NCBI RefSeq assembly: GCF_963576545.1
Contig: NC_083651.1
Location: 6,838,386-6,902,385, forward strand
Source of the DNA: Limanda limanda
Lineage: Eukaryota; Chordata; Actinopteri; Pleuronectiformes; Pleuronectidae
Reading direction: 5' to 3'
DNA length: 64,000 nucleotides
Shown here piece after piece: positions 16,478 through 60,972 of this stretch. The notes under the pieces were generated by a model, which was given only the letters and a program-made list of their open reading frames with translations, had not been told where the DNA came from and searched no databases. Each line of letters begins with the position of its first letter. Position 1 is the first letter of the stretch. Both the position numbers and the translations under genes were made by a program.

Positions 16478-17215
16478 CTATATCTGAGGTCACAGCCCGA
16501 CTCAAGGACAAAATGGGGAAGGCCACACATGAGATTAACCTGAAAATAAGTTTATTTAAAAAAAAGATGAACAGGAACTGTAAGTGTAGAAATCATAGTG
16601 GTCACGGATTGAAATTCTTTCCATCTTCAAAACAGTTATTGTTGTTTATCTTAATTCATACTGGTAAGAAATGCAACGGCAAGAGCAAAAAGAGCACCCA
16701 TTATTGCCTCCACTATCATAAAAAATCTTTCTTAAAAGTAGAAATAGCAAATATGTAACTTGTGTCTGAAGTTGGTTTCAAGTCTCAAAGGTGAAATTTA
16801 GATGTGTATGACACCAGTGGCAAAACATAAGGAAAATAAGGTATCCATGCTTTGGGCTTAAATATCTAATAGGATGTGAACACCTACATGTAACATAGAG
16901 AGTGACAGTAATACTAGCCAATCGTAGATGTGCTGTTGGAATGGGTGACGCAAGTAGAGGGAGATAAATTGTGATGCTGTGGGAGACATCTTCAGACTTG
17001 GTGGGGGGGGGGGCTGACAATTGCTCATGTAACTCTGTTTGTATATTGTTTCACCCTCTGGTCTCCTTGATGCATCAAGTCTACTTTAGAGTCTTCTGCG
17101 TGTCAGCTGCTGCCTGAGTTCTCCTTTCACCAGCTTCCAGAAAACTTCGATCACAGTGCACTGCTGCCTTCAGAGAAGTTCTAATAAGAGTGAGATAAGG
17201 GGACATCACCTGTGT

Positions 17216-17506
17216 TAATTATGCAGGTATACAACCCGAGGATAAAAATAGATATTGCACTTGTACTCATGATGGATAATGTATCTTGTTTATTTTGTAT
17301 CCAGTGGTGCTTAAACACATTAATGTTTAATGATGAAAGCTCTTCCAGTCCACTGGTTTGTTGGTTTAAATCCCCAGCTCATGCGCTGCCGTCTTCAGTC
17401 AAGATACTAATAACAGTGACACGAGGGGATGAGAGTGTTTTCATGAAGGAACACTGAACAGAAAACAGACAAAATAAATATATATCATTTAAAGCTTCTA
17501 TTCACA
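17216..17506 (+). promoter_or_regulatory. Double upstream region with a relic OR start codon
   Basis: 17217-17285 matches the 5' flank of the OR at 60055 up to and including the first bases of its coding sequence (ATGATGGATAATGT at 17269-17282). At that point the sequence switches to the 5' flank of the A-type genes (TTGTTTATTTTGTATCCAG), which leads to the real ATG at 17507. The relic start opens an out-of-context frame to 17457. A decayed SINE-like motif (GGTTTAAATCCCCAGC) lies near 17365. I cannot identify a TATA box or transcription start. Confidence 0.65.
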
Positions 17507-18424
17507 ATGGATAATGTCTCTGTGATAACAATATTCTATCTTTCAGGTTTAACTGAATCAAAGAACAACAGGTATATTCTCTTCTCTCTCAGTTTGTTAT
17601 GTTACTGTGTCATTTTGCTTGTTAATATAACTCTTATTGTGACCATCTTCTTGGATAAAAACCTCCATGAACCAATGTATATTCTGCTGTGTGCATTTTG
17701 CATGAATGGACTTTATGGAACAACAGGTTTCTTCCCCAAGTTTCTATGGGATCTGCTCTCTCCTGTTCATGTCATCTCTTATTCTGGATGTCTTGTTCAG
17801 GGTTTCGTAATTCACTCTTTTGTCAGCAGTGAACTCTCTTTTCTTGCAGTAATGGCATTTGACAGATATGTAGCCATATGTCGACCACTGCAGTATCACT
17901 CTATCATGTCAAAGCACAGACTCATGATGTTAGTGTGTTTCTCCTGGTTTACACCTTTCTGCATTATAGGTGTGAATATTGGTCTAACATCAAGACTGAA
18001 GTTATGCAGCCCTTATATTGCCAGACTGTTCTGCGTCAATGGGATTATTGTTACACTTGCTTGTTTCCCAGCTGAAACTATGGTTAACAACATCGTTGCA
18101 TATATTTCAATACTCTTTTATGTATTTCATGGTGTATTTATAGTTTGGTCGTACATATATCTTGTTAGAACATGTGTAAATTCTATAGAAAACAGGGCAA
18201 AGTTCATGCAAACATGTGTGCCACATTTATTCTCTTTGATCATTTTTCTACTCACGATACTTTTCGATATGCTGATTATACCATTTGGTTCAAAGAAATT
18301 ACCTCAAACCTTTAAAAACTTTATTGCAGTAGAATTTCTTGTCATACCTCCACTCATGAATCCTCTCATTTATGGTTTCAAATTGACCAAAATTCGGAAC
18401 AGACTTCAGAGACTGTTACTTTAA
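17507..18424 (+). CDS. Odorant receptor, MDNVS subfamily, A-B chimera
   Basis: This is an intact 305-residue intronless receptor. It opens MDNVS with an N3 sequon. KNLHEPMYILLC lies at residues 51-62. The TM3 end reads MAFDRYVAICRPLQY (117-130), with F in place of the subfamily Y at 118. TM7 reads IPPLMNPLIYGFKL (280-293). The N terminus (ITIFYLSGLTESKNNRY) is of the type in genes 28372 and 54943. The middle and the C terminus (VIHSFVSSELS, NGIIVTLAC, LQRLLL) are of the type in gene 60055. It is 11 residues different from the gene at 20088, all after residue 117. It acts as a G-protein-coupled odorant receptor. The ligand is unknown. Confidence 0.95.
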   Translation: MDNVSVITIFYLSGLTESKNNRYILFSLSLLCYCVILLVNITLIVTIFLDKNLHEPMYILLCAFCMNGLYGTTGFFPKFLWDLLSPVHVISYSGCLVQGFVIHSFVSSELSFLAVMAFDRYVAICRPLQYHSIMSKHRLMMLVCFSWFTPFCIIGVNIGLTSRLKLCSPYIARLFCVNGIIVTLACFPAETMVNNIVAYISILFYVFHGVFIVWSYIYLVRTCVNSIENRAKFMQTCVPHLFSLIIFLLTILFDMLIIPFGSKKLPQTFKNFIAVEFLVIPPLMNPLIYGFKLTKIRNRLQRLLL

Positions 18425-18706
18425 AAAAAGGTTGAAATTAGTATTGATGTGTGTAGAAAATTCTTTATTCCACTTTTAATTTAGTACTATTATTAAATCA
18501 TTTTGTATAACCATTTTCTGCATGTATATTAACTTGACTCAATTCATTTCAATATGTATGTTAAATGTACTACAGTTCTTTGTTAAGAAATGATGCGCAC
18601 ATTTGAGTTAATAATAACTGTTCTGTTCATTTTGTTAGGGGGTATTAAGATATCTTTGCACAAAAAATAAAACGTTGCGAAAAAAAAGATTTGCTAAAGG
18701 AGAGTA

Positions 18707-18973: not shown

Positions 18974-19798
18974 ATTAAATCAACAAATTGATCGGAAAGT
19001 TTATTTAAGCTATACTAAGCTCTGTTTAATTTTCCAGGAAGAACACTAATTCTCTCTATACCTGAGGTCACAGCCTGACTCAAGGACAAAGTGGGGAAGG
19101 CCACACATGAGATTAACCTGAAAATAAGTATATTTAAAAAAAAAATGAACAGGAAATGTAAGTGTAGAAATCATAGTGGTCATGGATTGCAATTCTTTCC
19201 ATTTTCAAAACAGTTATTGTTGTTTATCTTAATTCATACTGGTAAGAAATGCAACGGCAAGAGCAAAAAGAGGAAGCACCCCTTATTGCCTCAACTATCA
19301 TAAAAAAGCTTTCTCAAAAGTAGAAATAGCAAATATGTAACTTGTGTCTGAAGTCGGTTTCAAGTCTCAAAGGTGAAATTTAGATGTGTATGACACCAGT
19401 GGCAAAACATAAGGAAAGTAAGGTATCCATGCCTTTGGCTTAACGATCCAATAGGATGTGAACACCTACATGTAACACAGAGAGTCACAGCAATTCTAGC
19501 CAATCATAGATGTGCTGTTGGAATGGGTGACGCAAGTAGAGGGAGATAAATTGTGATGCTGTGGGAGACATCTTCAGACTTGGTGGGGGGGGGGGCTGAT
19601 AATTGCTCATGTAACTCTGTTTGTATATTGTTTCACCCTCTGGTCTCCTTGATGCATCAAGTCTACTTTAGAGTCTTCTGCGTGTCAGCTGCTGCCTGAG
19701 TTCTCCTTTCACCAGCTTCCAGAAAACTTCGATCACAGTGCACTGCTGCCTTCAGAGAAGTTCTAATAAGAGTGAGATATGGGACATCACCTGTGTTA

Positions 19799-20087
19799 AT
19801 TATGCAGGTATACAACCCGAGGATAAAAATAGATATTGCACTTGTACTCATGATGGATAATGTATCTTGTTTATTTTGTATCCAGTGGTGCTTAAACACA
19901 TTAATGTTTAATGATGAAAGCTCTTCCAGTCCACTGGTTTGTTGGTTTAAATCCCCAGCTCATGCGCTGCCGTCTTCAGTCAAGATACTTATAACAGTGA
20001 CATGAGGGGATGAGAGTGTTTTCATGAAGGAACACTGAACAGAAAACAGACAAAATAAATATATATCATTTAAAGTTTCTATTCACA
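19799..20087 (+). promoter_or_regulatory. Double upstream region with a relic OR start codon, copy 2
   Basis: It has the same arrangement as at 17216-17506: a B-type flank ending in ATGATGGATAATGT, joined to an A-type flank that leads to the ATG at 20088. Confidence 0.65.
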
Positions 20088-21005
20088 ATGGATAATGTCT
20101 CTGTGATAACAATATTCTATCTTTCAGGTTTAACTGAATCAAAGAACAACAGGTATATTCTCTTCTCTCTCAGTTTGTTATGTTACTGTGTCATTTTGCT
20201 TGTTAATATAACTCTTATTGTGACCATCTTCTTGGATAAAAACCTCCATGAACCAATGTATATTCTGCTGTGTGCATTTTGCATGAATGGACTTTATGGA
20301 ACAACAGGTTTCTTCCCCAAGTTTCTATGGGATCTGCTCTCTCCTGTTCATGTCATCTCTTATTCTGGATGTCTTGTTCAAGGTTTCGTAATTCACTCTT
20401 TTGTCAGCAGTGAACTCTCTTTTCTTGCAGTAATGGCATATGACAGATATGTGGCCATATGTCAACCACTGCAGTATCACTCTATCATGTCAAAGCACAG
20501 ACTCATGAAGTTAGTGTGTTTCTCCTGGTTTACACCTTTCTGCATTGTAGGCACAAATATTGGTCTAACATCAAGACTGAAGTTATGCAGCCCGTATATT
20601 GCCAGACTGTTCTGCGTGAATGGGATTATTGTTACACTTGCTTGTTCCCGAAATGAAACTATGGTTAACAACATCGTTGCATATATTTCAATACTCTTTT
20701 ATGTATTTCATGGTGTATTTATAGTTTGGTCGTACATATATTTCGTTAGAACATGTCTAAATTCTATAGAAAACAGGGCAAAGTTCATGCAAACATGTGT
20801 GCCACATTTATTCTCTTTGATCATTTTTCTACTCACGGTACTTTTTGATATGCTGATTATACCATTTGGTTCAAAGAAATTACCTCAAACCTTTAAAAAC
20901 TTTATTGCAGTAGAATTTCTTGTCATACCTCCACTCATGAATCCTCTCATTTATGGTTTCAAATTGACCAAAATTCGGAACAGACTTCAGAGACTGTTAC
21001 TTTAA
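20088..21005 (+). CDS. Odorant receptor, MDNVS subfamily, A-B chimera
   Basis: This intact 305-residue receptor is the tandem sister of the gene at 17507. The first 117 residues are identical. The 11 differences are at 118, 126, 141, 154, 156, 187-189, 219, 224 and 251, within and between TM3 and TM6, the part that forms the ligand pocket in the family. MAYDRYVAICQPLQY has the usual Y118, and Q126 in place of R. Three changes in a row at 187-189 (FPA to SRN) lie in extracellular loop 2 or near the top of TM5. The start was chosen at MDNVS, as in the sisters. The 3' flank is of B type. Confidence 0.95.
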   Translation: MDNVSVITIFYLSGLTESKNNRYILFSLSLLCYCVILLVNITLIVTIFLDKNLHEPMYILLCAFCMNGLYGTTGFFPKFLWDLLSPVHVISYSGCLVQGFVIHSFVSSELSFLAVMAYDRYVAICQPLQYHSIMSKHRLMKLVCFSWFTPFCIVGTNIGLTSRLKLCSPYIARLFCVNGIIVTLACSRNETMVNNIVAYISILFYVFHGVFIVWSYIYFVRTCLNSIENRAKFMQTCVPHLFSLIIFLLTVLFDMLIIPFGSKKLPQTFKNFIAVEFLVIPPLMNPLIYGFKLTKIRNRLQRLLL

Positions 21006-21554: not shown

Positions 21555-22299
21555 TAAATCAACAAATTGATCGTAAAGTTTATTTAAACTATACTAAGGT
21601 CTGTTTAATTTTCCAGAAAGAACACTAATTCTCTCTATACCTGAGGTCACAGCCCGACTCAAGGACTAAGTGGGGAAGGCCACACATGAGATTAACCTGA
21701 AAATAAGTATATTTTTTTAAAAAATGAACAGGAAATGTAAGTGTAGAAATCATAGTGGTCACGGATTGAATTCTTTCCATTTTCAAAACAGTTATTGTTG
21801 TTTATCTTAATTCATACTGGTAAGAAATGCAAAGGCAAGAGCAAAAAAAGGAAGCACCCATTATTGCCTCCACTATCATAAAAAAGCTTTCTCAAAAGTA
21901 GAAATAGCAAATATGTAACTTGTGTCTTAAGTCAGGTTCAAGTCTCAAAGGTGAAATTTAGATGTGTATGACACCAGTGGCAAAACATAAGGAAAATAAG
22001 GTAACCATGCCTTTGGCTTAACGATCCAATAGGATGTGAACACCTACATGTAACATAGAGAGTGACAGTAATTCTAGCCAATCATAGATGTGCTGTTGGA
22101 ATGGGTGACGCAAGTAGAGGGAGATAAATTGTGATGCTGTGGGAGACATCTTCAGACTTGGGGGGGGGGGGGGCTGACAATTGCTCATGTTACACTGTTT
22201 GTATATTGTTTCACCTTCTGGTCTCCTTGATGCATCAAGTCTACTTTAGAGTCTTCTGTGTGTCAGCTGCTAAAAATAGATATTGCACTTCTACTCATA

Positions 22300-23229
22300 A
22301 TGGATAATGTCTCTATGATAAAAGTGTTCTATCTTTCAGGTTTAAGTGAAACAATGAACTACAGGTCTGTTCTCTTCTCTCTCACTTTACTGTGTTACTG
22401 TGTCATTTTGCTGGTAAATATAACTCTTATTGTGACCATCATCTCGGATAAAAACCTCCATGAACCAATGTATATTCTGCTGTGTGCATTTTGCATGAAT
22501 GGACTTTATGGAACAACAGGTTTCTTCCCCAAGTTTCTGTGGGATCTGCTCTCTCCTGTTCATGTCATCTCTTACTGTGGATGTCTTCTTCAGGTTCAAG
22601 TACTGTACTCATTTGTAGGCATTGATCTCTCCATTCTTGCAGTAATGGCATATGACAGATATGTGGCTATATGTCGACCACTGCAGTATCACTCTATCAT
22701 GTCAAAGCAAAGACTCATGAAGTTAGTGTTTTTCTCCTGGTTTACACCCTTATGCATTTTAGGCACAAATATTTATCTAACATCAAGACTGAAGTTATGC
22801 AGCCCGTATATTGGCAGACTGTTCTGTGTGAATTGGATTATTGTTACACTTGCTTGTTTCCAGGCTGAAACTATGGTTAACAACATTGTTGCTTATATAA
22901 CAATCATCTTTTATATATTTCATGGTGTATTTATAGTTTGGTCCTACATATATATCATTAGAATATGTGTAAATTCTATAGAAAACAGGGCAAAGTTCAT
23001 GCAAACATGTGTGCCACATTTATTCTCTTTGATTACTTTCATTTTCACAATACTTTTTGACATTATGTATATACGATTTGGTTCAAAGACATTACCTCAA
23101 ACCTTTAAAAACTTTGTTGCAATAGAATTTCTTGTCATACCTCCACTCATGAATCCTCTCATTTATGGTTTCAAATTGACCAAAATTCGGAAGAGACTTC
23201 GCGAAATTGTTACTTTACAAAGAAGTTAA
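22300..23229 (+). CDS. Odorant receptor, MDNVS subfamily, B-A chimera
   Basis: This is an intact 309-residue intronless receptor. The start is at the ATG of MDNVSMIKVF. The open frame extends 14 codons upstream but only to a GTG, and sister genes all start at MDNVS. The N terminus (IKVFYLSGLSETMNYRSV) is of B type as in gene 60055. From about residue 95 onward it is of A type (LLQVQVLYSF, NWIIVTLAC, LREIVTL), as in genes 28372 and 54943. KNLHEPMY, MAYDRYVAICRPLQY and PPLMNPLIYGFKL are all intact. The 3' flank is of A type. Role: an olfactory G-protein-coupled receptor of unknown ligand. Confidence 0.94.
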   Translation: MDNVSMIKVFYLSGLSETMNYRSVLFSLTLLCYCVILLVNITLIVTIISDKNLHEPMYILLCAFCMNGLYGTTGFFPKFLWDLLSPVHVISYCGCLLQVQVLYSFVGIDLSILAVMAYDRYVAICRPLQYHSIMSKQRLMKLVFFSWFTPLCILGTNIYLTSRLKLCSPYIGRLFCVNWIIVTLACFQAETMVNNIVAYITIIFYIFHGVFIVWSYIYIIRICVNSIENRAKFMQTCVPHLFSLITFIFTILFDIMYIRFGSKTLPQTFKNFVAIEFLVIPPLMNPLIYGFKLTKIRKRLREIVTLQRS

Positions 23230-23661
23230 GTCTTTGTGTACATTAAGGAAACTTAAAACCTTGCTTGTATTGTACATACTTTAAATATGTACTGCTGAAC
23301 CAGCTGTTATTTTGAAGTCTGTTATATATCTAACTTTTTATTTTCGGTTGAAATTGGTATTAATGTGTGTAGAAAATTCTTTATGCTCAAGGTTTAGGGT
23401 GATGAATCCTCTGCGTCTTTTTATTTAGTGCTATTATTAAATTCATTTTGTATAACCATTTTCTGTACGTATATTGACATGATTCCCCTTCATTTAAATA
23501 TGTATGTAAATTTACTAAAGTTCTTTGGTGAGAAATGATGTGCACATTTCATTAGATTTGTTATAAGTTAACTGTTCTGTTCATTTTGTGGGGTGGGGTT
23601 TAAGATATCTTTTCACAAAAATAAAACACTGAGAAAACCCAGACTTGCTAAAGGAGAGAGA

Positions 23662-24044
23662 TGAAAGTAGTCAATGTTTAACCTTTTCATTTAACAAAGA
23701 GGTTCCTGCTAAACATTTTTGCTGGAATCATTTAGATTTTTGCAAAAAGCTCCATTCTTGAGTTTGTCCTGGCCTTCACCACGATACAGAACATTACAAT
23801 AGAGTATTCAGGCCAAATATACAGTAACACAATGGCAATAAAAGCTGTAACAATATCAGTTACAGACAAAACCAAAGTTTTTACTCCCCACATTGATTAT
23901 TCCCTGAGATTTAAAAACGGTGAAATGAAGTCTTCATTAAAGCCAGATAAAGTGAGCTGTGTTATTTCATTGCATCTTATATTCAGTGTTCACTGCTCTA
24001 TTCTCCCAAGTAATTGTGATTGTTGCAAGAAAGAAATCTGTTGA
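23662..24044 (+). repeat. Recurrent OR downstream block, copy 4 (broken frame)
   Basis: The same block begins ATGAAAGTAGTCAATG but has a TAA six codons in and a later insertion near 23788. Its 3' extension (GTGAAATGAAGTCTTC) is shared with the copy at 61268. Confidence 0.7.
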
Positions 24045-24385
24045 GTAAAGCACATGATGCCTCGTTGAATACATCCTATAACATTATTCATATTCTGTAT
24101 GAAAGACATAATACATGTACGGTGAAGATCAGTAAACTTTAATTATAGTTTTCAAGCCGTTAGAGCCAGAATAATGTCACCATGAACATGTGTAAAACAT
24201 TGTTGATCAGGAAATCAAATGCTTCAACCATCACATTTTAATTCTCAACACAATGTCTGACACTGAAAAGGAGGGTAGACAAAGGGGGGGGGGGGAGCAT
24301 CCCATTCGGATGGACCAATGGACACTGACATATGGCAAAGGAAATACAACGACGAGTACAGAATGTATTTGCGGTAAGGTGTTTA

Positions 24386-24854
24386 TGTCAGGGTGGGCAA
24401 AATGGCAAGCGTGAACCCAAAAGCACGACAATGGAGCAGGTTTGGAAATAACAAAATTCTTCTTTATTAACGGATCAGGGGTCAGAAGCCAGGCAGTCAG
24501 TCAGAGAAGGCAAACAAATCCGGTAGGGAGCAGGCAAAACGGTAGTCCAGGGTACAGCTGGCAGTTTACAATGGAGATCAGGCACAGAACACTAAGTCAG
24601 AAGATAACGCCGGAAGGCTAGGGGAAAACACACTAGATGATCTGGCAGAGAACAAAGGAAACAGGCAGGTGGATATACTGGGAGACTAATGATTTGATAG
24701 AAGGCAGGTGCGTCTGTGGGTGGGGCAGGTAATGGGATTTGTGGAATGAGGAATTGCAGAGCAGGGAGGAGTGGCTTAGTTCTGAAATGACATTAGGATT
24801 AGTATATACAAAAAAAAGATAAGACATTGTTAATAACAGGCTGAAGTCGTGACG
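24386..24854 (-). mobile_element. 3' LTR of a Gypsy-type element with polypurine tract
   Basis: Read on the minus strand it starts GTCACGACTTCAG (the initial T is mutated to C) and ends CCACCCTGACA. CTTTATTAA at about 24463 gives AATAAAG on the minus strand. A GAGGGAGGGG polypurine tract lies at its minus-strand upstream edge. The same LTR with the same left flank occurs at 61983-62297. Confidence 0.6.
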
Positions 24855-26640: not shown

Positions 26641-27915
26641 GCGCCGACGTGATATCATTGCATGGTCAGGGAGGGTGGCACACGGTGAATGGGACACCTG
26701 CTTCTCTATATACCCCTCTAGATTACAATTGAAATCAGGCGGTTCAAGGAGGCGAAGGGACCTCTCACAGAGCTGTGCAGCATCCTCCACAAGAAGCTCA
26801 CGACCTTGAGGAGGGCCAAGTGGCATAGAAGGGGGAGGAAGGAGAGGACCAGGAAGCGAACTGCCTTTCTAGCAAAACCATTTGGGTTTACAAAACAGCT
26901 GCTCGGTAGAAGCGCATTGGCCAGCTCACCTGCTCCAAAGCTGAGATCGACCTCCACCTCAGAGTTACTTTCAGCGATGAATCCAGGAAGCAAGATCTGG
27001 GCCTCTTTGAGTCCTTGATTAATGCACCTGCACCAACTATGGACTTCGAAGGGAAGGAGCCCAGCTGGAAGGAGGTCCAGGAGGGGGTCAAGAAGGCAAG
27101 AGCAAGCTCAGCCCCAGGACAGAGTGGGGTAACTTACAAGTTACACAAGAACTACCCAAGGTTACTCTTCAGGTTCTGGAGGATCCTGAAGGTGATCTGG
27201 AGGAGAGGCAAGGTAGCTCATCAGTGGAGGCATACAGACGGGGTGTGGAGTCTAAAGGAGGCAGACTCGAAGAACATTGATTACTTCAGAACCATCTCGC
27301 TGCTCACTGATGAGGGGAAGATATTCTTCAGCATTGTTGCCGGGAGCCTGATAGACTACATCCTGAGTAACTCCTACATTGATCACTCGATCCAGAAAGG
27401 AGGGATCCCGAAGGTATCGGGTTGTCCTGAACACACAGGCGTGGTCACCCAGTTGATCGGGGAAGCCCGGCAAAACAAGGGAGACCTGGTGGTGTTGTGG
27501 CTGGACCTGTCAACGCCTATTGATTCATACCCCACAAGCTGGTCGAAGTGGGACTAAACCGGCACCATCTACCAGGCAAGTTCCGGGATCTCATGCTGGA
27601 CTACTACAACAGCTTCAGTCTGAGAGTGTCTGCTGGGTCTACAACCTCAGAGTGGCACAAGCTCGAGAAGGGCATCATCAGTTGATTTACCATTTCAGTG
27701 ATCCTTTTCACGCTCACCATGAACATGGTGTTGAAGTTGGCAGAGGTTCAGTGCAGACAGCCCCTCACCAAATCCGCTGTAAGACAGCCCCCCAATAGGG
27801 CCTTCATCGATGACCTGACTGTTACAATAAAATCTGTCCCAGGGAGAAGGTGGATCCTGAAGGGCCTCAAGGAGTTGGTCACCTGGGCTCGTATAAGCTT
27901 CAAGCCCAACTAGTA
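26640..27915 (+). pseudogene. LINE reverse-transcriptase relic (R2/NeSL-like)
   Basis: Frames in order carry ELCSILHKKLTTLRRAKWHR, then KRTAFLAKPFGFTKQLLG, then PSWKEVQEGVKKARASSAPG and GKIFFSIVAGSLIDYILSN, then QKGGIPKVSGCPEHTGVV. Later pieces are DYYNSFSLRVSAGSTTSEWH and FIDDLTVTIKSVPGRRWILK, the last holding the catalytic-site pattern (F/Y)xDD as FIDD. At least three frameshifts separate the parts. This is the middle of the LINE family whose C terminus is at 13679-14745. It is dead and truncated at both ends. Confidence 0.7.
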
Positions 27916-27919
27916 ATAA

Positions 27920-28371
27920 ATGCGAAAATTCCCATTCTTTCCTTCAGCTTCATACACATATAATATTGTCTCTAAAGAACAAATGGCAAAAAAATAAACG
28001 TCCGTCTCAGGTTGGGTTCAAAATTCTAAATTGACAATATAAAGAAGGTTTAATTTATACTGGGCATCAAAGGTTCAGGTATGAGTTGGTGTACAAATAT
28101 TTAAAGACAATAACGTGGGCGTGAATCTCCAGGTGCTTTCAGGTATTACCTTGTTTATTTTGTATCCAGTGGTGCTTAAACACATTAATGTTTAATGATG
28201 AAAGCTCTTCCTGTCCACTGATTGGTTGGTTTAAATCCCCAGCTCATGCACTGTCGTCTTCAGGCAAGATACTAATAACAGTGAGATGATGGGATGAGAG
28301 TGTTTTCATGAAGGAACACTGAACAGGACACAGACAAAATAACTTTATATCATTTAAGGATTTTATTCACA
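27920..28371 (+). promoter_or_regulatory. A-type OR upstream region
   Basis: The segment is shared with 54500-54942 and partly with 15035-15252, 17283-17506 and 19865-20087. It contains a decayed tRNA-SINE-like part (GGTTTAAATCCCCAGC near 28230, then GTCTTCAGGCAAGATACT). It leads directly to the ATG at 28372. No core promoter motif was identified with confidence. Confidence 0.5.
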
Positions 28372-29376
28372 ATGGATAATGTCTCTGTGATAACAATATT
28401 CTATCTTTCAGGTTTAACTGAATCAAAGAACAACAGGTATATTTTCTTCTCTCTCAGTTTGTTGTGTTACTGTCTAATTTTGCTGGTAAATATAACTCTC
28501 ATTGTGACCATCATCTTGGATAAAAACCTCCACGAACCAATGTATATTCTGCTTTGTGCATTTTGCATGAATGGACTTTATGGAACAGCAGGTTTCTTCC
28601 CCAAGTTTCTGTGGGATCTGCTCTCTCCTGTTCATGTCATCTCTTATTCTGGATGTCTTCTTCAGGCTCAAGTACTGTACTCTTTTGCCTGTAGTGATGT
28701 CTCCATTCTTGCAGTAATGGCCTATGACAGATATGTGGCTATATGTCGACCACTGCAGTATCACTCTATCATGTCAAGGCAAAGACTCATGAAGTTAGTG
28801 TGTTTCTCCTGGTTAACACCTTTCTGCATTCATGGTGCGAATATTTGTCTAACATCAAGACTGAAGTTATGCAGCCCTTATATTGCCAGACTGTTCTGTG
28901 TGAATTGGATTATTGTTGCACTTGCTTGTTTCCCAGCTGAAACTATGGTTAACAGCATAGTTGCATATTTTACAATACTCATTTATGTATTTCATGGTGT
29001 ATTTATAGTTTGGTCCTACATATATATCATTAGAAAATGTGTAAATTCTATAGAGAACAGGGCAAAGTTCATGCAAACATGTGTGCCACATTTATTCTCT
29101 TTGATCACTTTTCTTTTCGCAATACTTTTTGATATTATGAACATACGATTTGAGTCGAAAAATTTACCTCAACCGTTTAAAAACTTTATTGCAATAGAAT
29201 TTCTTGTCATACCTCCACTAATGAATCCTCTCATTTATGGTTTCAAATTGACCAAAATTCGGAACAGACTCCGCGAAATTGTAACTTTAAAAAACAAGTT
29301 AAGTCTTGGTGTACATTTAGGAAACTTAAAACCTTGCTTGTATTGTACATACTTTAGAAATGCTATTCTGAACTAG
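28372..29376 (+). CDS. Odorant receptor, MDNVS subfamily, A type, extended C terminus
   Basis: This is an intact receptor of 334 residues; its sisters have 305-309. Landmarks are the MDNVS start with sequon, KNLHEPMYILLC at 51-62, MAYDRYVAICRPLQY and PPLMNPLIYGFKL. After LREIVTLK the sister at 54943 ends in TS and a stop. Here a run of six A instead of five (29288-29293) shifts the frame, adding NKLSLGVHLGNLKPCLYCTY and a few more residues. The extra tail is cytoplasmic. Whether it matters is unknown. The gene has A-type features at both ends. Confidence 0.93.
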   Translation: MDNVSVITIFYLSGLTESKNNRYIFFSLSLLCYCLILLVNITLIVTIILDKNLHEPMYILLCAFCMNGLYGTAGFFPKFLWDLLSPVHVISYSGCLLQAQVLYSFACSDVSILAVMAYDRYVAICRPLQYHSIMSRQRLMKLVCFSWLTPFCIHGANICLTSRLKLCSPYIARLFCVNWIIVALACFPAETMVNSIVAYFTILIYVFHGVFIVWSYIYIIRKCVNSIENRAKFMQTCVPHLFSLITFLFAILFDIMNIRFESKNLPQPFKNFIAIEFLVIPPLMNPLIYGFKLTKIRNRLREIVTLKNKLSLGVHLGNLKPCLYCTYFRNAILN

Positions 29377-31977: not shown

Positions 31978-32457
<480 letters not shown>

Positions 32458-49982: not shown

Positions 49983-50966
49983 ATGATGGAAAATGCTTCA
50001 GCTGTCACACTGTTAACTCTTACAGGTTTAGATTTTGCATTGGAGTATAAAATTACTCTCTTCTTGTTGACCTTACTGTGGTACTTCATTATTCTGTTGG
50101 GAAACATTAGTATCATTGTTGCTATTGTTGTGGATAAAAACCTCCATGAGCCGATGTATATCTTTTTGTGTAATCACTGCATCAATGCTTTGTATGGGAC
50201 GCTTGGTTTTTACCCCAAATTCCTTCTGGATCTTCTGTCATCTCATGTAATTTCTTATGCTGGATGCATGCTGCAGGGTTTTGTGATACATTCAGCGATT
50301 TGCTGTGATTTTTCTATCTTGACCCTGATGGCATACGACAGATATTTGGCCATATGTCAACCTTTAACCTACCACTCATTCATGACAAAGCAGAGAATCA
50401 CCCTCTTTGTGTTTTTCTCGTGGCTCATACCTCTTTATTGTATGTTTATGAACACAGCAACATTATTAGGATCAAGTTTATGTGGCTCACACGTGAAGAA
50501 GATCTACTGCGTTAACTGGATGATATTTACTCTTACCTGCTCACCACCCGCAGCAAACATTGGAGTCACATATTTTAATCTTCTGTTTTATTTTGCGCAT
50601 TTTTGGTTTATTATTTGGACTTATGTGTATTTGATAAGAACATGCTTAAGATCCACAGAAAACTGGGGGAGGTTTATGCAAACATGTTTGCCGCATGTGA
50701 TCTCTCTTGCCACTTTTACCATATCTGTCCTTTTAGATATTCTGTACATGAGATTTGGGTCGCCGAATTTATCTCAGGATCTCAGTAATTTTATGGCAAT
50801 GGAGTTTCTACTCATTCCTCCGGTAGTGAATCCATTTGTGTATGGATTCAAACTTACCAAAATTCGCAAAAAATTTGTGAATTTAGTTTATATTAAAAGG
50901 AAAGTTTCAAAGTGTCAACCTATGGATCTTCACATTAAAAGTGATCTCTCTGAAACTGTGACATAA
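49983..50966 (+). CDS. Odorant receptor, MENAS type, single copy here
   Basis: This intact 327-residue intronless receptor has ATGATGG at the start, so initiation could be at 49983 or 49986. I give the first; either leaves the sequon in MENAS. KNLHEPMYIFLC starts TM2. The TM3 end reads LMAYDRYLAICQPLTYH. TM7 reads IPPVVNPFVYGFKLTKIRKK, and the tail is about 30 residues longer than in the MDNVS subfamily. It is related to the MDNVS genes (KNLHEPMY, IRTC, MQTC.PH, FKLTKIR) but clearly diverged, and is not part of a recent duplication in this window. Confidence 0.94.
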   Translation: MMENASAVTLLTLTGLDFALEYKITLFLLTLLWYFIILLGNISIIVAIVVDKNLHEPMYIFLCNHCINALYGTLGFYPKFLLDLLSSHVISYAGCMLQGFVIHSAICCDFSILTLMAYDRYLAICQPLTYHSFMTKQRITLFVFFSWLIPLYCMFMNTATLLGSSLCGSHVKKIYCVNWMIFTLTCSPPAANIGVTYFNLLFYFAHFWFIIWTYVYLIRTCLRSTENWGRFMQTCLPHVISLATFTISVLLDILYMRFGSPNLSQDLSNFMAMEFLLIPPVVNPFVYGFKLTKIRKKFVNLVYIKRKVSKCQPMDLHIKSDLSETVT

Positions 50967-52410: not shown

Positions 52411-53005
52411 ATCTGTACTGTACTCGCCTGCAGTGATCTCTCCATTCTTGCAGTAATGGCATATGAGAGATGATGTGGCTATATGTCGACCACTGCAGTA
52501 TCACTCTATCATGTCAAAGCAAACACTCATGAAGTTAGTCAGTTTCTCCTGGTTAACACCCTTCTGCATTATAGGTGCGAATATGAAGTTATGCAGCCCG
52601 TATACTGCAAGTCTCTTCTGTGTGAATTGGCTCATTGTTGCACTTGCTTGTTTCCCCGCTGAAACTATGGTTAACAGCATAACTGCATATATGACAATGT
52701 TCATTTATGTATTTCATATTTATAGTTTGGTCCTACATATATATCATAAGAACATGTGTAAATTCTATAGAAAACAGGGCAAAGTTCATGCAAACATGTG
52801 TGCCACATTTATTCTCTTTGATCACTTTACTTTTCGCAATACTTTTTGATATTATAAGTTTCCGATTTGAGTTGAAAAAATTACCTCAACCCTTTAAAAA
52901 ACTTTATTGCAATAGAATTGAATCCTCTCATGTATGGTTTCAAATTGACCAAAATTCGGAACAGACTTCGCAAAATTGTTACTTTAAAAAACAAGTTAAG
53001 TCTTG
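52411..53005 (+). pseudogene. Odorant receptor pseudogene, MDNVS subfamily, A type
   Basis: It starts mid-gene at TM3 (about residue 100), after a decayed A-type upstream region (52255-52390), so the first third is deleted. Visible defects are an extra base in the MAYDRY segment at about 52468, an 18-bp in-frame deletion after GAN (52583), a 5-bp deletion near 52719, an extra A at 52896-52901 and a deletion of about 24 bp that removes most of VIPPLM at 52919. Pieces such as AICRPLQYHSIMSKQ, NSIENRAKFMQTCVPH and LKKLPQPF are still readable. It has the six-A tail seen in gene 28372. It is clearly non-functional. Confidence 0.93.
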
Positions 53006-53639: not shown

Positions 53640-54499
53640 TTTGAATGCCAGATAAAGTGAGTTGTGTTATTTCATTGCAGCTTATATTCACTGTTCACTG
53701 TTCTATTCTCCCAAGTCATTGTGATTGTTGCTATGGGAAACCATGGTGATGTTTATATAATTCAATTATAATTGCTTTAATAATCTGAATAATCTGAGAA
53801 ATCTGCTGAATAAAGCACATGCTGCCTCTTTGAATACATCCTGTAACATTATACATATTCTGTATGAAAGACAGAATACATGTACGTTGAATATCAATAA
53901 ACTTTACTTATCGTTTTCAATCCGTTAGAGCCAGACTAATGTCACCATGAACATGTGTAAAACATTGTTGAGCAGGAAATCAAATGCTTCAACCATCACA
54001 TTTAAATGATCAACACTATGTCTGACACTGAAAAGGAGGGTAGACAAAGGATAAAGATACATATGAAACTACATTAACTGGGTTATCTCTGCTCTTTAGT
54101 TACTAGCGGGACAATTCATCAAAGCTGACTTTGTTTGTTCTCATTATATAAATAAAATAAAATCAACTGAGATGTTACTGAATCTAAAGTCAACATATAT
54201 AAAGGGGCCTTCAGGTACTATTTAAAACCCAGGAACAGACCAACACCTTTTCCCTGCAGTTTGATACTTCCACCCCTCTGTCAAATCACATGGAATAAAT
54301 CTTGGTCTTGGTCTTGGAGTTGATTGAAGACTGAAGATTGGCAAACAAATTAATAAGATACTATATTTACAATAAACACTGCTCTGCATAATTTTCAAGC
54401 TCAAATAAATTTTCTCTATTTCGGTCATCGGGAAAGAATTTCCTTCTTTCATATCCTCCCACCTTGATCACTGCAATTCTTTGGTAAGCACTCGTTCTT
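53640..54499. other. Intergenic sequence between OR units
   Basis: Part of it (53640-54050) parallels 24000-24270 and 61560-61880, so it belongs to the duplicated OR flank. The rest has no recognised feature. Confidence 0.5.
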
Positions 54500-54942
54500 G
54501 CGAAAACTCCCATTCTTGCCTTCAGCTTCATACACATATAATATTGTCTGTAAAGAAAAAATTGCAAAAAATATAAACATCTGTCTCAAATTGGGTTCAA
54601 CCTTGACAATATTAGGAAGGTTTCATTAATACTGGGCATGAAAGGTTCAGGTATGAGTTGGTAGACAAATATTTAAAAACAACAAGGTGGGGGTGAATCT
54701 CCAGGTGCTTTCAGGTATTACCTTGTTTATTTTGTATCCAGTGGTGATTTAACACATTAGTGTTTAATGATGAAAGCTCTTGCAGTCCACTGATTGGTTG
54801 ATTTAAATCTCAGGTCATGCACTGACGTCTTCAGTCAAGATACTAATAACAGTGAGATGAGGGGATGAGAAAGTTTTCATGAAGGAACACTGAACAGAAA
54901 ACAGACAAAATAACTTTATATCACTTAAATCTTCTTTTCATA
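54500..54942 (+). promoter_or_regulatory. A-type OR upstream region
   Basis: It is shared with 27920-28371. It includes the decayed SINE-like part near 54795-54845. No core promoter motif could be assigned. Confidence 0.5.
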
Positions 54943-55872
54943 ATGGATAATGTCTCTGTGATAACAATATTCTATCTTTCAGGTTTAACTGAATCAAAGA
55001 ACAACAGGTATATTTTCTTCTCTCTCAGTTTGTTGTGTTACTGTGTCATTTTGCTTGTTAATATGACTCTTATTGTGATCATCATCTTGGATAAAAACCT
55101 CCATGAACCAATGTATATTCTGCTGTGTGCATTTTGCATGAATGGACTTTATGGAACAACAGGTTTCTTCCCAAAGTTTCTGTGGGATCTGCTCTCTCCT
55201 GTTCATGTCATCTCTTATTCTGGATGTCTTCTTCAGGCTCAAGTACTGTACTCATTTGCCTGCAGTGATGTCTCCATTCTTGCACTAATGGCCTATGACA
55301 GATATGTGGCTATATGTCGACCACTGCAGTATCACTCTGTCATGTCAAAGCAAAGACTCATGAAGTTAATGTGTTTCTCCTGGTTTACACCTTTCTGCAT
55401 TCAAGGTGCGAATATTTGTCTAACATCAAGACTGAAGTTATGCAGCCCGTATATTGCCAGACTGTTCTGTGTGAATTGGATTATTGTTGCACTTGCTTGT
55501 TTCCCCGCTGAAACTATGGTTAACAGCGTAGTTTCATATATTACAATACTCATTTATGTATTTCATGGTGTATTTATAGTTTGGTCCTACATATATATCA
55601 TTAGAAAATGTGTCAATTCTATAGAAAACAGGGCAAAGTTCATGCAAACATGTGTGCCACATTTATTCTCTTTAATCACTTTTCTTTTCGCAGTACTTTT
55701 TGATGTTATGAATATACGATTTGAGTTGAAAAAATTACCTCAACCCTTTAAAAACTTTATTGCAGTAGAATTTGTTGTCATACCTCCACTCATGAATCCT
55801 CTCATTTATGGTTTCAAATTGACCAAAATTCGGAACAGACTTCGCGAAATTGTTACTTTAAAAACAAGTTAA
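54943..55872 (+). CDS. Odorant receptor, MDNVS subfamily, A type
   Basis: This intact 309-residue intronless receptor serves as the reference for the A haplotype. N terminus ITIFYLSGLTESKNNRY, then KNLHEPMYILLC, LLQAQVLYSFACSDVS, MAYDRYVAICRPLQYHSVMS, FCVNWIIVALACFPAE, IIRKCVNSIEN, KLPQPFKNFIAVEF, PPLMNPLIYGFKLTKIR and LREIVTLKTS before the stop. The N3 sequon is present. It differs from gene 28372 at few positions and in the normal five-A end. Gene and flanks are A type throughout. Confidence 0.95.
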   Translation: MDNVSVITIFYLSGLTESKNNRYIFFSLSLLCYCVILLVNMTLIVIIILDKNLHEPMYILLCAFCMNGLYGTTGFFPKFLWDLLSPVHVISYSGCLLQAQVLYSFACSDVSILALMAYDRYVAICRPLQYHSVMSKQRLMKLMCFSWFTPFCIQGANICLTSRLKLCSPYIARLFCVNWIIVALACFPAETMVNSVVSYITILIYVFHGVFIVWSYIYIIRKCVNSIENRAKFMQTCVPHLFSLITFLFAVLFDVMNIRFELKKLPQPFKNFIAVEFVVIPPLMNPLIYGFKLTKIRNRLREIVTLKTS

Positions 55873-56544: not shown

Positions 56545-57247
56545 ATTAAATCAACAAATTGATCGGAAAGTTTATTTAAAGGAGACATATTATGCCCATT
56601 TTACCGCAGTTGATATGGTTCATTGAGGTCTTAATAAAATGTCTGAAACATATTTTGGTCAAAATACCACAAGGATCATTTAAAACAGCACCCTTTTTAC
56701 CCTGTCTAAAGCAGCCCTCCTCAGATTGACCTGTATTGAGTGCCACCCCCCCCCCCCCCCCCCCGTCCTCCCTCCTTCACGAGATACAAGCGCCCAGATT
56801 TTTAGCTATCCATTACCTCTGTAGAAATATGGCTACTGGAGACGAAGATACAATCTTGCAACCATATCGTTTTGAACCAGAGTCAGGTGGGCTGAAGCCT
56901 GGCTCCGGGGAGAGACAGCCCGGCTCCACCGGCCCGGTTAGCTCGAGCTAATGCTAGCCGGGGAGCCGGGCCGCCCCGCGAGCTGACCCAGCCGGCAGTG
57001 AGCTGACCGTCGGGCCGGCCCGACCCCCAAACAGGTGGAGAGATGGAGCAGGGACCCCCTACTGTATATATTGCATAAAATTGTGCTTATATTAAACTGG
57101 GCCTAGTGCCATGTTCAACATAACTACCCTGATATTATGCATTCAATACAAAGCTATTCAAATATTACACGGGTTCATATATTCATGTTTTTAATTTAAA
57201 CATGTGCAAAGTACAGGGTGGCCATGCCACTGCCATTTATAAACATA

Positions 57248-58863
57248 CAGTGGGTACGGAAAGTATTCAGACCCCTTTAAACTTTTCACTCTGTTTCATT
57301 GCAGCCATTTGCTAAAATCTAAAAAAGTTCATTTTATTTCTCATCAATGTACACTCAGCACCCCATCTTGACAGAAAAAAAAAAACAGAAATGTAGAAAT
57401 TTTTGCAAATTTATTAAAAAAGAAAAACTGAAATATCACATGGTCATAAGTATTCAGACCCTTTGCTCAGTATTGAGTAGAAGCAGCCTTTTGAGCTAGT
57501 ACAGCCATGAGTCTTCTTGGGAATGATGCAACAAGTTTTTCACACCTGGATTTGGGGATCCTCTGCCATTCTTCCTTGCAGATCCTCTCCAGTTCCATCA
57601 GGTTGGATGGTGAACGTTGGTGGACAGCCATTTTCAGGTCTCTCCAGAGATGCTCAATTGGGTTTAGGTCAGGGCTCTGGCTGGGCCAGTCAAGAATGGT
57701 CACAGAGTTGTTCCGAAGCCACTCCTTTGTTATTTTAGCTGTCTGCTTAGGGTCATTGCCTTGTTGGAAGGTGAACCGTCGGCCCAGTCTGAGGTCCAGA
57801 GCACTCTGGAAGAGGTTTTCTTCCAGGATATCTCTGTACTTTGCCGCTTTCATCTTTCCTTCAATTGCAACCAGTCGTCCTGTCCCTGCAGCTGAAAAAC
57901 ACCCCCATAGCATGATGCTGCCACCACCATGTTTCACTGTTGGGATTGTATTGGGCAGGTGATGAGCAGTGCCTGGTTTTCTCCACACATACCGCTTAGA
58001 ATTAACGCCAACAAGTTCAATCTTGGTCTCATCAGACCAGAGAATCTTATTTCTCATAGTCTGGGAGTCCTTCATGTGTTTTTTGGAAAACTCTATGCGG
58101 GCTTTCATATGTCTTGCACTGAGTAGAGGCTTCTGTCAGGCCACTCTGCCATAAAGCCCCGACTGGTCGAGGGCTGCAGTGATAGTTGACTTTGTGGAAC
58201 TTTCTCCCATCTCCCTACTGCATCTCTGGAGCTCAGTCACAGTGATCTTTGGGTTCTTCTTTACCTCTCTCACCAAGGCTCTTCTCCCACGATTGCTCAG
58301 TTTGGCTGGACGGCCAGGTCTAGGAAGAGTTCTGGTCATCCCAAACTTCTTCCATTTAAAGATTATGGAGGCCATTGTGCTCTTAGGAACCTTGAGTGCT
58401 GCAGAAATTATTTTGTAACCTTGGCCAGAGCTGTGCCTTGCCACAATTCTGTTCCTTCGACCTCATGATTCTCATTTGCTCTGACATGCACTGTGAGCTG
58501 TAAGGTCTTATATAGACAGGTGTGTGCCTTTCCTAATCAAGTCCAATCAGTTTAATTAAACACAGCTGGACTCCAATGAAGGAGTAGAACCATCTCAAGA
58601 AGGATCAGAAGAAATGGACAGCATGTGAGTTAAATATGAGTGTCACAGCAAAGGGTCTGAATACCTATGACCATGTGATATTTCAGTTTTTCTTTTTTAA
58701 TAAATTTGCAAAAATGTATACATTTCTGTTTTTTTCTGTCAAGATGGGGTGCTGATTGTACATTAATGAGAAATAAAATGAACTTTTTTGATTTTTGCAA
58801 ATTGCTGCAATGAAACAAAGAGTGAAATATTTAAAGGGGTCTGAATACTTCCCGTACCCACTG
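57248..58863 (-). mobile_element. Tc1-like transposon
   Basis: Ends start CAGTGGGTACGGAAAGTATT and, on the other strand, CAGTGGGTACGGGAAGTATT, nearly perfect inverted repeats of at least 34 bp. TA is duplicated at 57246-57247 and 58864-58865. It contains one transposase gene on the minus strand. The 1.6-kb length is normal for the family, so the element is structurally complete. Confidence 0.95.
57467..58444 (-). pseudogene. Tc1 transposase with one stop and a lost catalytic Asp
   Basis: Two frames in the same phase are split by one TGA (58136-58138). The N-terminal part has a helix-turn-helix type DNA-binding region (GQGYKIISAALKVPKSTMA, GRPAKLSNRG). The C-terminal part has the first catalytic Asp in LWSDETKIEL and the Glu in QSPDLNPIEHLW. 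The second catalytic Asp should be in QQDNDPKHT, but here the wording is QQGNDPKQT, so a Gly is in its place. The protein cannot be active. The true start lies upstream of 58444 (frames with MRIMRSKEQ). All other core motifs are well preserved, so inactivation looks fairly recent. Confidence 0.9.
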
Positions 58864-59264
58864 TACATCTTGCATACAACACTGAGCTATTCAAGTAATT
58901 CACAGATTCATGTTTTTATTTTAAACATACATGTAGAAGAGACAGTGAATCCTCAAGCTATCTGTGGATGGCACACATACTCCCACATTAGTGAGATGTC
59001 GGACCCTGATGGGTAGCACACAACTTATCGAATCTTGGATGGATGGAGGTTGTCACACAGAGGGTCAAATCAGCCTCACAATATGTTGGATGCATGTTAA
59101 TGTGTATTGAAAGACAATTAAATTCGTGAAAAAAAAAATTAAAAAAATGGTCTAATCAACCAAAGATTTCGCGGCCCACCTGCAGGACCCCCTGTTGAAG
59201 ACCTCTGCTTTAAGGTATACTTAGCTCTGTTTAATTTTTTTCCAGGAAGAACACTAATTCTCTC

Positions 59265-60054
59265 TATACCTGAGGTCACAGCCCGACTTAAGGACAAAGT
59301 GGGCAAGGCCACACATGAGATTAACCTGAAAATAAGTATATTTAAAAAAAAAGATGAACAGGAACTGTAAGTGTAGAAATCATAGTGGTCACGGATTGCA
59401 ATTCTTTCCATTTGCAAAACAGTTATTGTTGTTTATCTTAATTCATACTGGTAAGAAATGCAAAGGCAAGAGCAAAAAGAGGAAGCACCCATTATTGCCT
59501 CCACTATCATAAAAAAGCTTTCTCAAAAGTAGAAATAGCAAATATGTAACTTGCGTCTCAAGTCGGTTTCAAGTCTCAAAGGTGAAATTTAGATGTGTAT
59601 GACACCAGTGGCAAAACATAAGGAAAATAAGGTATCCATGCTGTAGGCTTAACTATCCAATAGGATGTGAACACCTACATGTAACAAAGGGGGGCAGCAA
59701 TTCTAGCCAATCATAGATGTGCTGTTGGAATGGGTGACGCAAGTAGAGGGAGATAAATTGTGATGCTGGTCGAGACATCTTCAGACTGGGGGGGGGGGGG
59801 GGCTGACAATTGCTCATGTAACTCTGTTTAAATATTGTTTCACCCTCTGTTCTCCTTGATGCATCAAGTCTACCTTAGAGTCTTCTGCGTGTCAGCTGCT
59901 GCCTGAGTTCTCCTTTCACCAGCTTCCAGAAAACTTCCATCACAGTGCTAATAACAGTGAGTTCTAATAACAGTGAGATAAGGGGACATCACCTGTGTTA
60001 ATTATGCAGGTATACAACCCGAGGATAAAAATAGATATTGCACTTGTACTCATG
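59265..60054 (+). promoter_or_regulatory. B-type OR upstream region
   Basis: The block is shared with 16484-17285, 19062-19865 and 21641-22299. It carries a G run (15 G here at about 59788-59802) before CTGACAATTGCTCATG and ends in ACTCATGATGGATAATG, running without a break into the coding sequence of 60055. No TATA box was identified with confidence. Confidence 0.5.
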
Positions 60055-60972
60055 ATGGATAATGTCTCTGTGATAAAAGTGTTCTATCTTTCAGGTTTAA
60101 GTGAATCAATGAACTACAGGTCTGTTCTCTTCTCTCTCACTTTACTGTGTTACTGTGTCATTTTGCTGGTAAATATAACTCTTATTGTGACCATCATCTT
60201 GGATAAAAACCTCCATGAACCAATGTATATTCTGCTGTGTGCATTTTGCATGAATGGACTTTATGGAACAACAGGTTTCTTCCCCAAGTTTCTGTGGGAT
60301 CTGCTCTCTCCTGTTCATGTCATCTCTTACTCTGGATGTTTTGTTCAGGGTTTAGTAATTCACTCTTTTGTCAGCAGTGACCTCTCTTTTCTTGCAGTAA
60401 TGGCATATGACAGATATGTGGCTATATGTCGACCACTGCAGTATCACTCTGTCATGTCAAAGCAAAGACTCATGAAGTTAGTGTGTTTCTCCTGCTTAAC
60501 ACCTTTCTGCATTGTAGGCATAAATATTTGTCTAACATCAAGACTGAAGTTATGCAGCCCTTATATTGCCAGACTCTTTTGTGTGAATGGGATTATTGTT
60601 ACACTTGCTTGTTCCCCAGATGAAACTATGGTTAACAACATCGTTGCATATGTTTCAATACTCTTTTATGTATTTCATGGTGTATTTATAGTTTGGTCCT
60701 ACATATATCTTGTTAGAACATGTGTAAATTCTACAGAAAACAGGGCAAAGTTCATGCAAACATGTGTGCCACATTTATTCTCTTTGATCACTTTTCTTTT
60801 CACGGTACTTTTTGATCTTATGAATGTACGATTTGGTTCAAAGAAATTACCTCAAACCTTTAAAAACTTTATTGCAGTAGAATTTCTTGTCATACCTCCA
60901 CTCATGAATCCTCTCATTTATGGTTTCAAATTGACCAAAATTCGGAACAGACTTCAGAGACTGTTATTTTAA
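60055..60972 (+). CDS. Odorant receptor, MDNVS subfamily, B type
   Basis: This is an intact 305-residue intronless receptor. The frame is open 20 codons upstream and has other ATGs at 60004 and 60052, but MDNVS at 60055 matches all sisters. Landmarks are IKVFYLSGLSESMNYRSV at the N terminus, KNLHEPMYILLC, VQGLVIHSFVSSDLS, MAYDRYVAICRPLQYHSVMS, NGIIVTLACS, LVRTCVNSTEN, PPLMNPLIYGFKL and LQRLLF at the end. This is the reference for the B haplotype. It has B-type flanks at both ends. Confidence 0.95.
   Translation: MDNVSVIKVFYLSGLSESMNYRSVLFSLTLLCYCVILLVNITLIVTIILDKNLHEPMYILLCAFCMNGLYGTTGFFPKFLWDLLSPVHVISYSGCFVQGLVIHSFVSSDLSFLAVMAYDRYVAICRPLQYHSVMSKQRLMKLVCFSCLTPFCIVGINICLTSRLKLCSPYIARLFCVNGIIVTLACSPDETMVNNIVAYVSILFYVFHGVFIVWSYIYLVRTCVNSTENRAKFMQTCVPHLFSLITFLFTVLFDLMNVRFGSKKLPQTFKNFIAVEFLVIPPLMNPLIYGFKLTKIRNRLQRLLF

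What the first reader, a model, noticed from the sequence alone, without database searches (positions are those of the whole stretch)
16484..60972. Odorant receptors that are reciprocal recombinants of two haplotypes
In the MDNVS subfamily the 5' half (upstream block, N terminus) and the 3' half (C terminus, 3' flank) each occur in two forms, A and B. Genes 28372 and 54943 are A-A, 60055 is B-B, 17507 and 20088 are A-B, and 22300 is B-A. A-B and B-A next to each other look like reciprocal products of unequal crossover or gene conversion within the coding sequence. The likely switch lies in the almost invariant stretch from about residue 50 to 95. Such shuffling joins one upstream region to a different binding-pocket sequence.
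Basis: partly seen in the sequence, partly recalled or inferred. Interest (0 to 1): 0.75.

Follow-up and report, generated by a model that had tools for sequence, protein, structure and literature searches.

The report
Patchwork smell-receptor genes in a flatfish
A row of near-duplicate smell-receptor genes in a flatfish genome has swapped pieces among its members, so that one receptor front end and start region is joined to different odour-binding parts; this is a clean example of a known kind of gene shuffling, with a few genes that carry two start regions stacked one behind the other.

Summary
The coding mosaic is real: up to CDS position 95 genes 17507, 20088, 28372, 54943 go together against 22300, 60055; from 286 on, 60055 joins 17507/20088. 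The reading as reciprocal crossover products fails. About 120 bases after the stop of 60055 (260 in 22300) the 5' grouping returns, so the discordant piece is a two-sided tract of roughly 0.75-1.1 kb from near the start of TM3 into the 3' flank. A two-breakpoint model beats one tree by 343 AICc units. Gene 22300 is not A in its 3' half but a separate lineage. The source is common dab, Limanda limanda; 18 copies were found, with a third 5' type, C. Genes 17507 and 20088 carry a B upstream block with a dead B start, then the A block and A start; copies outside the window show comparable stacks. Codons 32-95 are unusually alike, synonymous sites included. Best explanation: repeated interlocus gene conversion plus breakpoints inside gene starts. 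Mosaic odorant receptors are a known kind.

The parts
15027..15249 (+). A-type distal upstream block (U) of a relic gene, ending near the site that corresponds to -222 of intact A genes
   Evidence: 96.4% to the block of gene 54943; sequence read
15262..15390 (+). C-terminal coding remnant of the same relic (CDS 789-918), A type
   Evidence: 98.5% to 54943; about 1 kb (-222 to +788) missing between the two pieces
16936..17259 (+). B-type upstream block in front of gene 17507
   Evidence: 92.9% to the block of 60055
17272..17286 (+). Relic B start (ATGGATAATGT...), 235 bases before the real ATG; opens a 61-codon uORF
17285..17493 (+). A-type proximal upstream block (V) joined directly to the relic B start
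   Evidence: 90.9% to 54943
17507..18424 (+). Odorant receptor, A 5' end (codons 1-31), B-type from about codon 97 to the end; some A-like sites near 465-566
19518..19840 (+). B-type upstream block in front of gene 20088
   Evidence: 92.0%
19853..19867 (+). Relic B start before gene 20088; 50-codon uORF
19866..20074 (+). A-type proximal upstream block (V)
   Evidence: 90.9%
20088..21005 (+). Odorant receptor, tandem duplicate of 17507, same mosaic
   Evidence: 96.6% over 3.2 kb
22096..22271 (+). B-type upstream block of gene 22300 (lacks part of the proximal block)
22300..23229 (+). Odorant receptor with B 5' end and a 3' half of its own lineage (not A)
23417..24702 (+). 3' flank of 22300, B type: returns to the 60055 grouping
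   Evidence: 93.9% to 61025-62297; distal-flank tree 97%
27921..28357 (+). A-type upstream blocks U and V of gene 28372, with a 64-base GT...AG intron-like element
28372..29376 (+). Odorant receptor, A 5' end and A-group 3' half
54493..54930 (+). A-type upstream blocks U and V of gene 54943
   Evidence: reference copy
54943..55872 (+). Odorant receptor, A 5' end and A-group 3' half
59725..60042 (+). B-type upstream block of gene 60055
   Evidence: reference copy
60055..60972 (+). Odorant receptor, B 5' end; tract from about CDS 277 to 1040 is discordant and shared with 17507/20088
61025..62297 (+). 3' flank of 60055, shared with 22300

Best explanation
A tandem array of one odorant-receptor subfamily in common dab evolves by repeated interlocus gene conversion and by duplications or template-switch repairs with breakpoints inside gene starts. 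SHOWN: a two-sided tract, starting somewhere between codons 31 and 97 and ending in the proximal 3' flank, is shared by 17507/20088 and 60055/75248 although their outer sequences differ; the 5' module (upstream block plus codons 1-31) comes in at least three types that do not follow the body; some copies carry two stacked 5' modules, the outer one a dead gene start. INFERRED: the tract moved by gene conversion (or an equivalent double crossover); the uniform codon 32-95 stretch is kept alike by conversion and is where front/body switches fall; the inner upstream block drives expression, since a transcript from the outer one would meet the relic start first. The direction of the transfer is not settled.
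For: Quartet support flips and flips back, means of 20 quartets as (17/20+60/75)|(22+A), (17/20+22)|(60/75+A), (17/20+A)|(60/75+22): -12..95 0/0/12.8; 95-286 0/0.4/1.7; 286-450 9.2/0.7/0.1; 450-600 2.4/0.3/1.6; 600-750 3.6/0/0; 750-905 2.2/0.1/0; 905-1190 6.6/0.2/0; 1190-1400 0/1.5/6.0; 1400-1600 0/0/4.9. Segment trees and AU tests. Two breakpoints at 286 and 1190 beat one tree by 343 AICc and the best of three single breakpoints tried by 139; by BIC the margins are 110 and 23 (breakpoints chosen by me, not searched). Deletions of 1, about 125 and about 30 bases are shared by 17507, 20088, 60055, 75248 and absent from the other 7 of 11 copies aligned. Stacked modules. Codons 32-95: mean pS within 15 intact copies 0.089 against 0.165 for codons 96-300, while pS to three outgroup genes is not lower (0.765 against 0.637); codon bootstrap 0.0058 for pS, 0.0002 for the ratio. 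Other fish: next to the dab clade 17/20/60/75 (100%) in the tree of residues 96-305 stand P0015 (7 of 10 diagnostic N-terminal residues B), P0003 (9 of 10 B) and P0005 (8 of 10 A).
Against: Two crossovers at different times would leave the same pattern; conversion is preferred for parsimony only. In the fourfold-site count the core is not clearly less variable (6 of 21 sites polymorphic, against 9 of 24 in codons 96-200 and 8 of 17 in 201-300). Many sites in 286-902 fit neither grouping (39 of 59 other splits). In 450-600 gene 17507 departs from the pattern (1-3 sites for, 2-4 against, over its ten quartets), needing a further small patch. Tract ends vary with the triplet: in 60055 coordinates from 996 to 1187 in most, 1341-1358 with g70 as backbone of g20. 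Rooted trees disagree about 22300 between 286-600 and 600-903. No second individual or raw reads were available.
Confidence: 0.78

Rival explanations
1. Reciprocal products of one unequal crossover within the coding sequence: 17507/20088 and 22300 are the two halves.
For: Opposite 5'/3' groupings in neighbouring genes; modest permutation support for 22300 as a mosaic of 60055/75248 and A genes (1140 to 10913 of 500000).
Against: Distal 3' flank returns to the 5' grouping; 22300 has no A 3' half; 17507/20088 have a B upstream block before the A block.
Confidence: 0.06
2. Gene 17507/20088 descends from a B gene whose front end was replaced by an A module (V plus codons 1 to about 32-95) and whose distal 3' flank was exchanged separately; the C-terminal sharing with 60055 is then plain descent.
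For: B upstream and a B start codon are still present in front of the A block; the last third of 22300 groups with the 17/20/60/75 set.
Against: Needs a separate breakpoint in the 3' flank of 17507/20088 and a converted stretch around 286-600 in 22300; by my count no fewer events than the main reading (inference).
Confidence: 0.3
3. No recombination: selection or rate differences make front and rear halves look alike in different sets.
For: Front-end differences include amino-acid changes (8-11 of 31 residues between A-front and B-front genes).
Against: Non-coding upstream blocks and 3' deletions agree with the switches; AU tests reject the swapped topologies.
Confidence: 0.02
4. Assembly chimera of haplotypes or copies.
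For: None seen; near-identical arrays are prone to it.
Against: The shared tract differs by about 4-7% between 17507/20088 and 60055 and the hybrid exists in two diverged copies (96.6%); a chimera would give near-identical stretches.
Confidence: 0.03

Closest known systems
Mosaic odorant receptors by gene conversion (primate OR cluster; Sharon et al. 1999, cited as ref 56 in the review PMC1995454, of which passages were read; the 1999 paper itself not seen)
   Same: Tandem OR copies exchange segments inside the coding exon, giving mosaic receptors
   Different: Here tract boundaries, the 3' flank return and the link of upstream block to N terminus are mapped in a flatfish; stacked 5' modules are added
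Interlocus gene conversion between duplicated genes (review PMC3924818; listing and start of the abstract only)
   Same: Tract copied between paralogous regions
   Different: Direction not resolved here
Teleost OR clusters growing by tandem duplication (PMC1325023, passages read)
   Same: Subfamily members largely contiguous and usually in one orientation
   Different: In the passages seen, gene conversion is named only as a possibility between families E and F and among ways of gene loss

Membership tests
Vertebrate odorant receptors | PF13853 (7tm_4) above the curated cut-off | tested here: met
   Six of six proteins given: 114-136 bits against 27; they were 17507, 22300, 28372, 60055 and two ORs of other groups (49983, 41918); 20088 and 54943 were not given
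Vertebrate odorant receptors | Intact single coding exon of about 300 codons | tested here: met
   All six window genes; of the 18 copies g78, h08 and h10 are broken
Reciprocal unequal-crossover products | Flanks exchanged from the breakpoint outward | tested here: not met
Reciprocal unequal-crossover products | Complementary partner carries the other two halves | tested here: not met
   22300 lacks an A 3' half
Interlocus gene-conversion tract | Discordant tract with a boundary on both sides in an otherwise concordant unit | tested here: met
Interlocus gene-conversion tract | One-way transfer: donor unchanged | tested here: inconclusive
   Trees allow either polarity
Interlocus gene-conversion tract | Synonymous divergence lowered in the exchanged region | tested here: inconclusive
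   Lowered for codons 32-95 by mean pS and codon bootstrap; the fourfold-site count does not show it clearly, and this is the shared core rather than the tract itself

The most novel reading that the evidence does not exclude
The 5' end of these receptors turns over as a module by stacking: a new upstream block with its own start and N terminus is set into the N-terminal coding sequence of an older copy, so that the old promoter and a dead start codon stay in front. Three arrangements are seen (B then A in 17507/20088; C then B in 89907/98747; A then B in 85728), which would make the array a natural set of promoter-swap and double-promoter receptors.
Probability: 0.3. Interest if true: 0.5.

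Novelty: new member of a known kind. Interest (0 to 1): 0.36.

Why it matters
It shows with defined boundaries how a receptor's ligand-binding part can become detached from its upstream region and N terminus, in a cluster where several combinations still have open reading frames. Genes with a related binding half under A or B upstream blocks, and with two stacked blocks, are ready-made material to ask whether the upstream block or the coding sequence decides where and how often an odorant receptor is chosen.

Tried and rejected
Reciprocal crossover: rejected by the flip-back of the 3' flank. 22300 as a B-A recombinant: modest support only. Link between the relic 15027-15390 and gene 17507: the relic's A upstream ends within a few bases of where the A block starts in 17507, as if a 2-kb spacer fragment had been inserted at -222; an ordinary deletion in the relic plus a tandem-duplication junction cannot be excluded, so no claim is made. 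Retrocopy origin of the A block: the 64-base intron-like element ends at -228 or -229, next to the junction, in 5 of 5 copies looked at, but nothing else points to retroposition. Nucleotide constraint as the cause of the uniform core: not favoured, since pS to the outgroup subfamily is high there. A first wording of mine, that nearly all separating sites after 289 put 60055 with 17507/20088, was withdrawn after the recount.

Literature: eight searches. Searches listed 20 of 212, 20 of 157, 20 of 107, 20 of 68, 4 of 4, 12 of 43 and 10 of 36 papers; no listed title or abstract start describes stacked OR start modules, but unlisted papers were not seen. Limanda limanda with olfactory receptor gave one paper, on brittle-star opsins. 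The library lacks most subscription journals. The whole-genome search for the relic/A-block junction did not complete.

Rows left out: analyses with flanks (quartets, 48) used 10 of 18 copies; g78, g81, g85, g89, g93, g96, g98 and h08 were not put in (3' flanks of g78 and g81 are interrupted; the others were not tried). One search aligned 11 of 18. Fragments at 15262, 52415, 84672, 89343 and 98391 were not put in trees. In one search, 704 triplets were scored and 116 kept after a screen and p<0.002; at most 14 per child were printed. pS used 15 of 18 copies, the three broken ones left out. One search found 4972 proteins, of which 120 were listed; 43 were classified and 22 put in the protein trees.
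Full report
Setting. The window is contig C16 6838386-6902385 of a 717-Mb genome. Listed proteins of the family that carry the name Limanda limanda lie on a contig of exactly C16's length, 26641247 bases, so the source is common dab, a flatfish. The genes are odorant receptors: PF13853 at 114-136 bits in six of six proteins given, four of them from the six genes of the finding; the best solved relatives of 60055 are consensus ORs.

Copies. One protein search of the own genome scored 120 of 270 candidates. Full-length or nearly full-length copies of this subfamily at 78% protein identity or more are 15 in the array (six in the window, nine beyond its right end, window coordinates 70153 to 98747) and three at C16 24.148-24.153 Mb; a fragment at 52415 is not counted. 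Three more distant relatives at 21.59 Mb served as outgroup. Names: g17 = 17507 and so on; h = second site; o = outgroup.

The observation. In the six genes, 11 of 13 informative sites in CDS 1-95 show g17, g20, g28, g54 against g22, g60; of 59 informative sites in 286-902, 13 show g17, g20, g60 against g22, g28, g54 and none shows the first split, while 39 show other splits and 7 have three alleles. Upstream blocks agree with codons 1-31 in 7 of 9 A-start copies and 7 of 9 copies whose start is nearest to B; g78 and h08 have lost the block, g93 and g96 have a C block. Segment trees of ten copies: -12..95 joins g22, g60, g75 (100%); 286-1060 joins g17, g20, g60, g75 (100%); 1190-1600, in the 3' flank, again joins g22, g60, g75 (97%) and sets g17, g20 apart (100%). 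AU tests: the middle tree is rejected on the left (1.4e-6) and on the right (3.5e-54); the right tree is not rejected on the left (0.159), though the left tree is rejected on the right (0.00012), the left segment being short and poorly resolved among the A genes. Averages over 20 quartets flip and flip back. Two breakpoints at 286 and 1190 (g22 coordinates, chosen, not searched) give AICc 11157.7 against 11501.0 for one tree and 11296.4 for the best of three single breakpoints; the other two-breakpoint and two three-breakpoint models tried were worse. So the discordant part is a tract with two ends, from the interval codon 31-97 to about 120 bases past the stop of g60 (260 in g22, which keeps a stretch that g60 has lost). 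Other triplets put the end at 996-1187 in g60 coordinates, and two at 1341-1358.

What 22300 is. Its 3' half is 85-93% identical to the 13 copies outside the g17/g20/g60/g75 set and 88-92% to that set, and not closer to the A genes in particular. In rooted trees it stands apart for 286-600 and beside the g17/g20/g60/g75 set for 600-903 (97%). Its 3' flank from 23417 on is 93.9% identical to that of 60055. It is therefore not the reciprocal partner of 17507/20088. A better B-front/A-body case is g81 (81363, outside the window): 98-100% to g22, g60, g75, g85, g89, g98 in the first 95 bases and 95-96% to g70/g78 in 286-600, although quartet support in its rear half is thin.

Stacked front ends. 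In front of 17507 and 20088 lies a B upstream block, a B start (ATGGATAATGT) 235 bases before the real ATG, then directly the A block V and the A start. From the dead start an open frame of 61 (17507) or 50 (20088) codons runs and stops before the real start. Two copies outside the window, g89 and g98, show a third upstream type (C) with a C start and about 45 codons, then B upstream sequence (in g98 only partly matched) and a B start; g85 shows an A upstream block and a worn coding piece before its B block. g93 and g96 have the C block in front of a start that becomes B within about the first 15 codons, read by eye. Whether these stacks arose as tandem-duplication junctions inside gene starts or by insertion at a break cannot be told from one genome. 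The relic at 15027-15390 (A upstream joined to an A C-terminal remnant) has its break within a few bases of the A-block start in 17507; this is noted, not explained.

The uniform core. Codons 32-95 have mean synonymous difference 0.089 within 15 intact copies against 0.165 for codons 96-300, but 0.765 against 0.637 to the outgroup, so the likeness is not due to nucleotide constraint shared with the outgroup; bootstrap over codons gives 0.0058 and 0.0002. Against this, the fourfold-site count (6 of 21; 9 of 24; 8 of 17) is not decisive, and gene pairs are not independent. Codons 1-31 also have low pS (0.107), each type being nearly uniform. Cys95 aligns with a conserved cysteine of solved ORs; that it opens TM3, so that switches in the core keep TM1-TM2 and exchange TM3 to the tail, and that the odour pocket lies mostly in TM3-TM6, is recalled.

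Other species. Of 43 proteins classified out of the 120 listed (flatfish, ten of them dab, and eight unnamed), N termini are A-like, B-like or mixed and occur with several tails. In the tree of residues 96-305, dab g17, g20, g60, g75 form a clade (100%) with P0015 (Platichthys), P0003 (Hippoglossus) and P0005 (unnamed) next to it; their N termini are mostly B, B and mostly A. The tail alone is no safe lineage mark: P0018 has the short tail but its body groups with P0021 and g22. So mixing of front and rear recurs in this subfamily, and the dab exchange looks younger than the split from the sampled Platichthys gene. Sampling is partial.

Known or new. A review read in passages (PMC1995454) states that gene conversion and recombination generate mosaic receptor sequences, citing a 1999 primate cluster paper that was not seen. 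The passages seen of the zebrafish repertoire paper (PMC1325023) name conversion as a possibility. The finding is a well-resolved member of a known kind; the stacked start modules are the less usual part, and no listed paper of eight searches described them, within the limits told under Tried and rejected.

Noticed in passing
15027-15390: Relic A-type gene: upstream block joined to the last 130 coding bases, about 1 kb missing, with its break at nearly the same place where the A block begins in 17507.
   Followed up: partly
52415-52990: A further broken copy of the subfamily (coding part from about base 300 on), about 81-85% to the intact genes, with 3' flank of the same kind.
   Followed up: no
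60055 and 75248 (the latter outside the window): 99% identical coding sequence and 97% over 3.7 kb: a recent duplication about 15 kb apart.
   Followed up: no
57246-58865: Transposon-like element: ORF 57467-58108 (minus strand) matches DDE_3 (PF13358), flanked by about 220-base inverted repeats 92% alike; Tc1-like by recall.
   Followed up: partly
62373-63302: ORF with a below-cut-off GDSL-like match (31.0 against 32.9 bits); probably part of a LINE by recall.
   Followed up: no
27015-27557: ORF that looks reverse-transcriptase-like by eye; Pfam gave no match.
   Followed up: partly
41918-42865 and 44898-45845: Pair of similar ORs of another subfamily (MENHTN), the first a PF13853 match; 49983-50966 and, on the minus strand, 9434-10411 belong to other OR groups too.
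   Followed up: no
L017/L018 (C16 21.592-21.599 Mb): In the three outgroup genes synonymous difference runs from about 0.6 (codons 196-225) to 0 (codons 256-285), so conversion-like patchiness is present there too.
   Followed up: no
17507-18424: A few A-like sites at about CDS 465-566 in 17507 that its sister 20088 lacks.
   Followed up: partly
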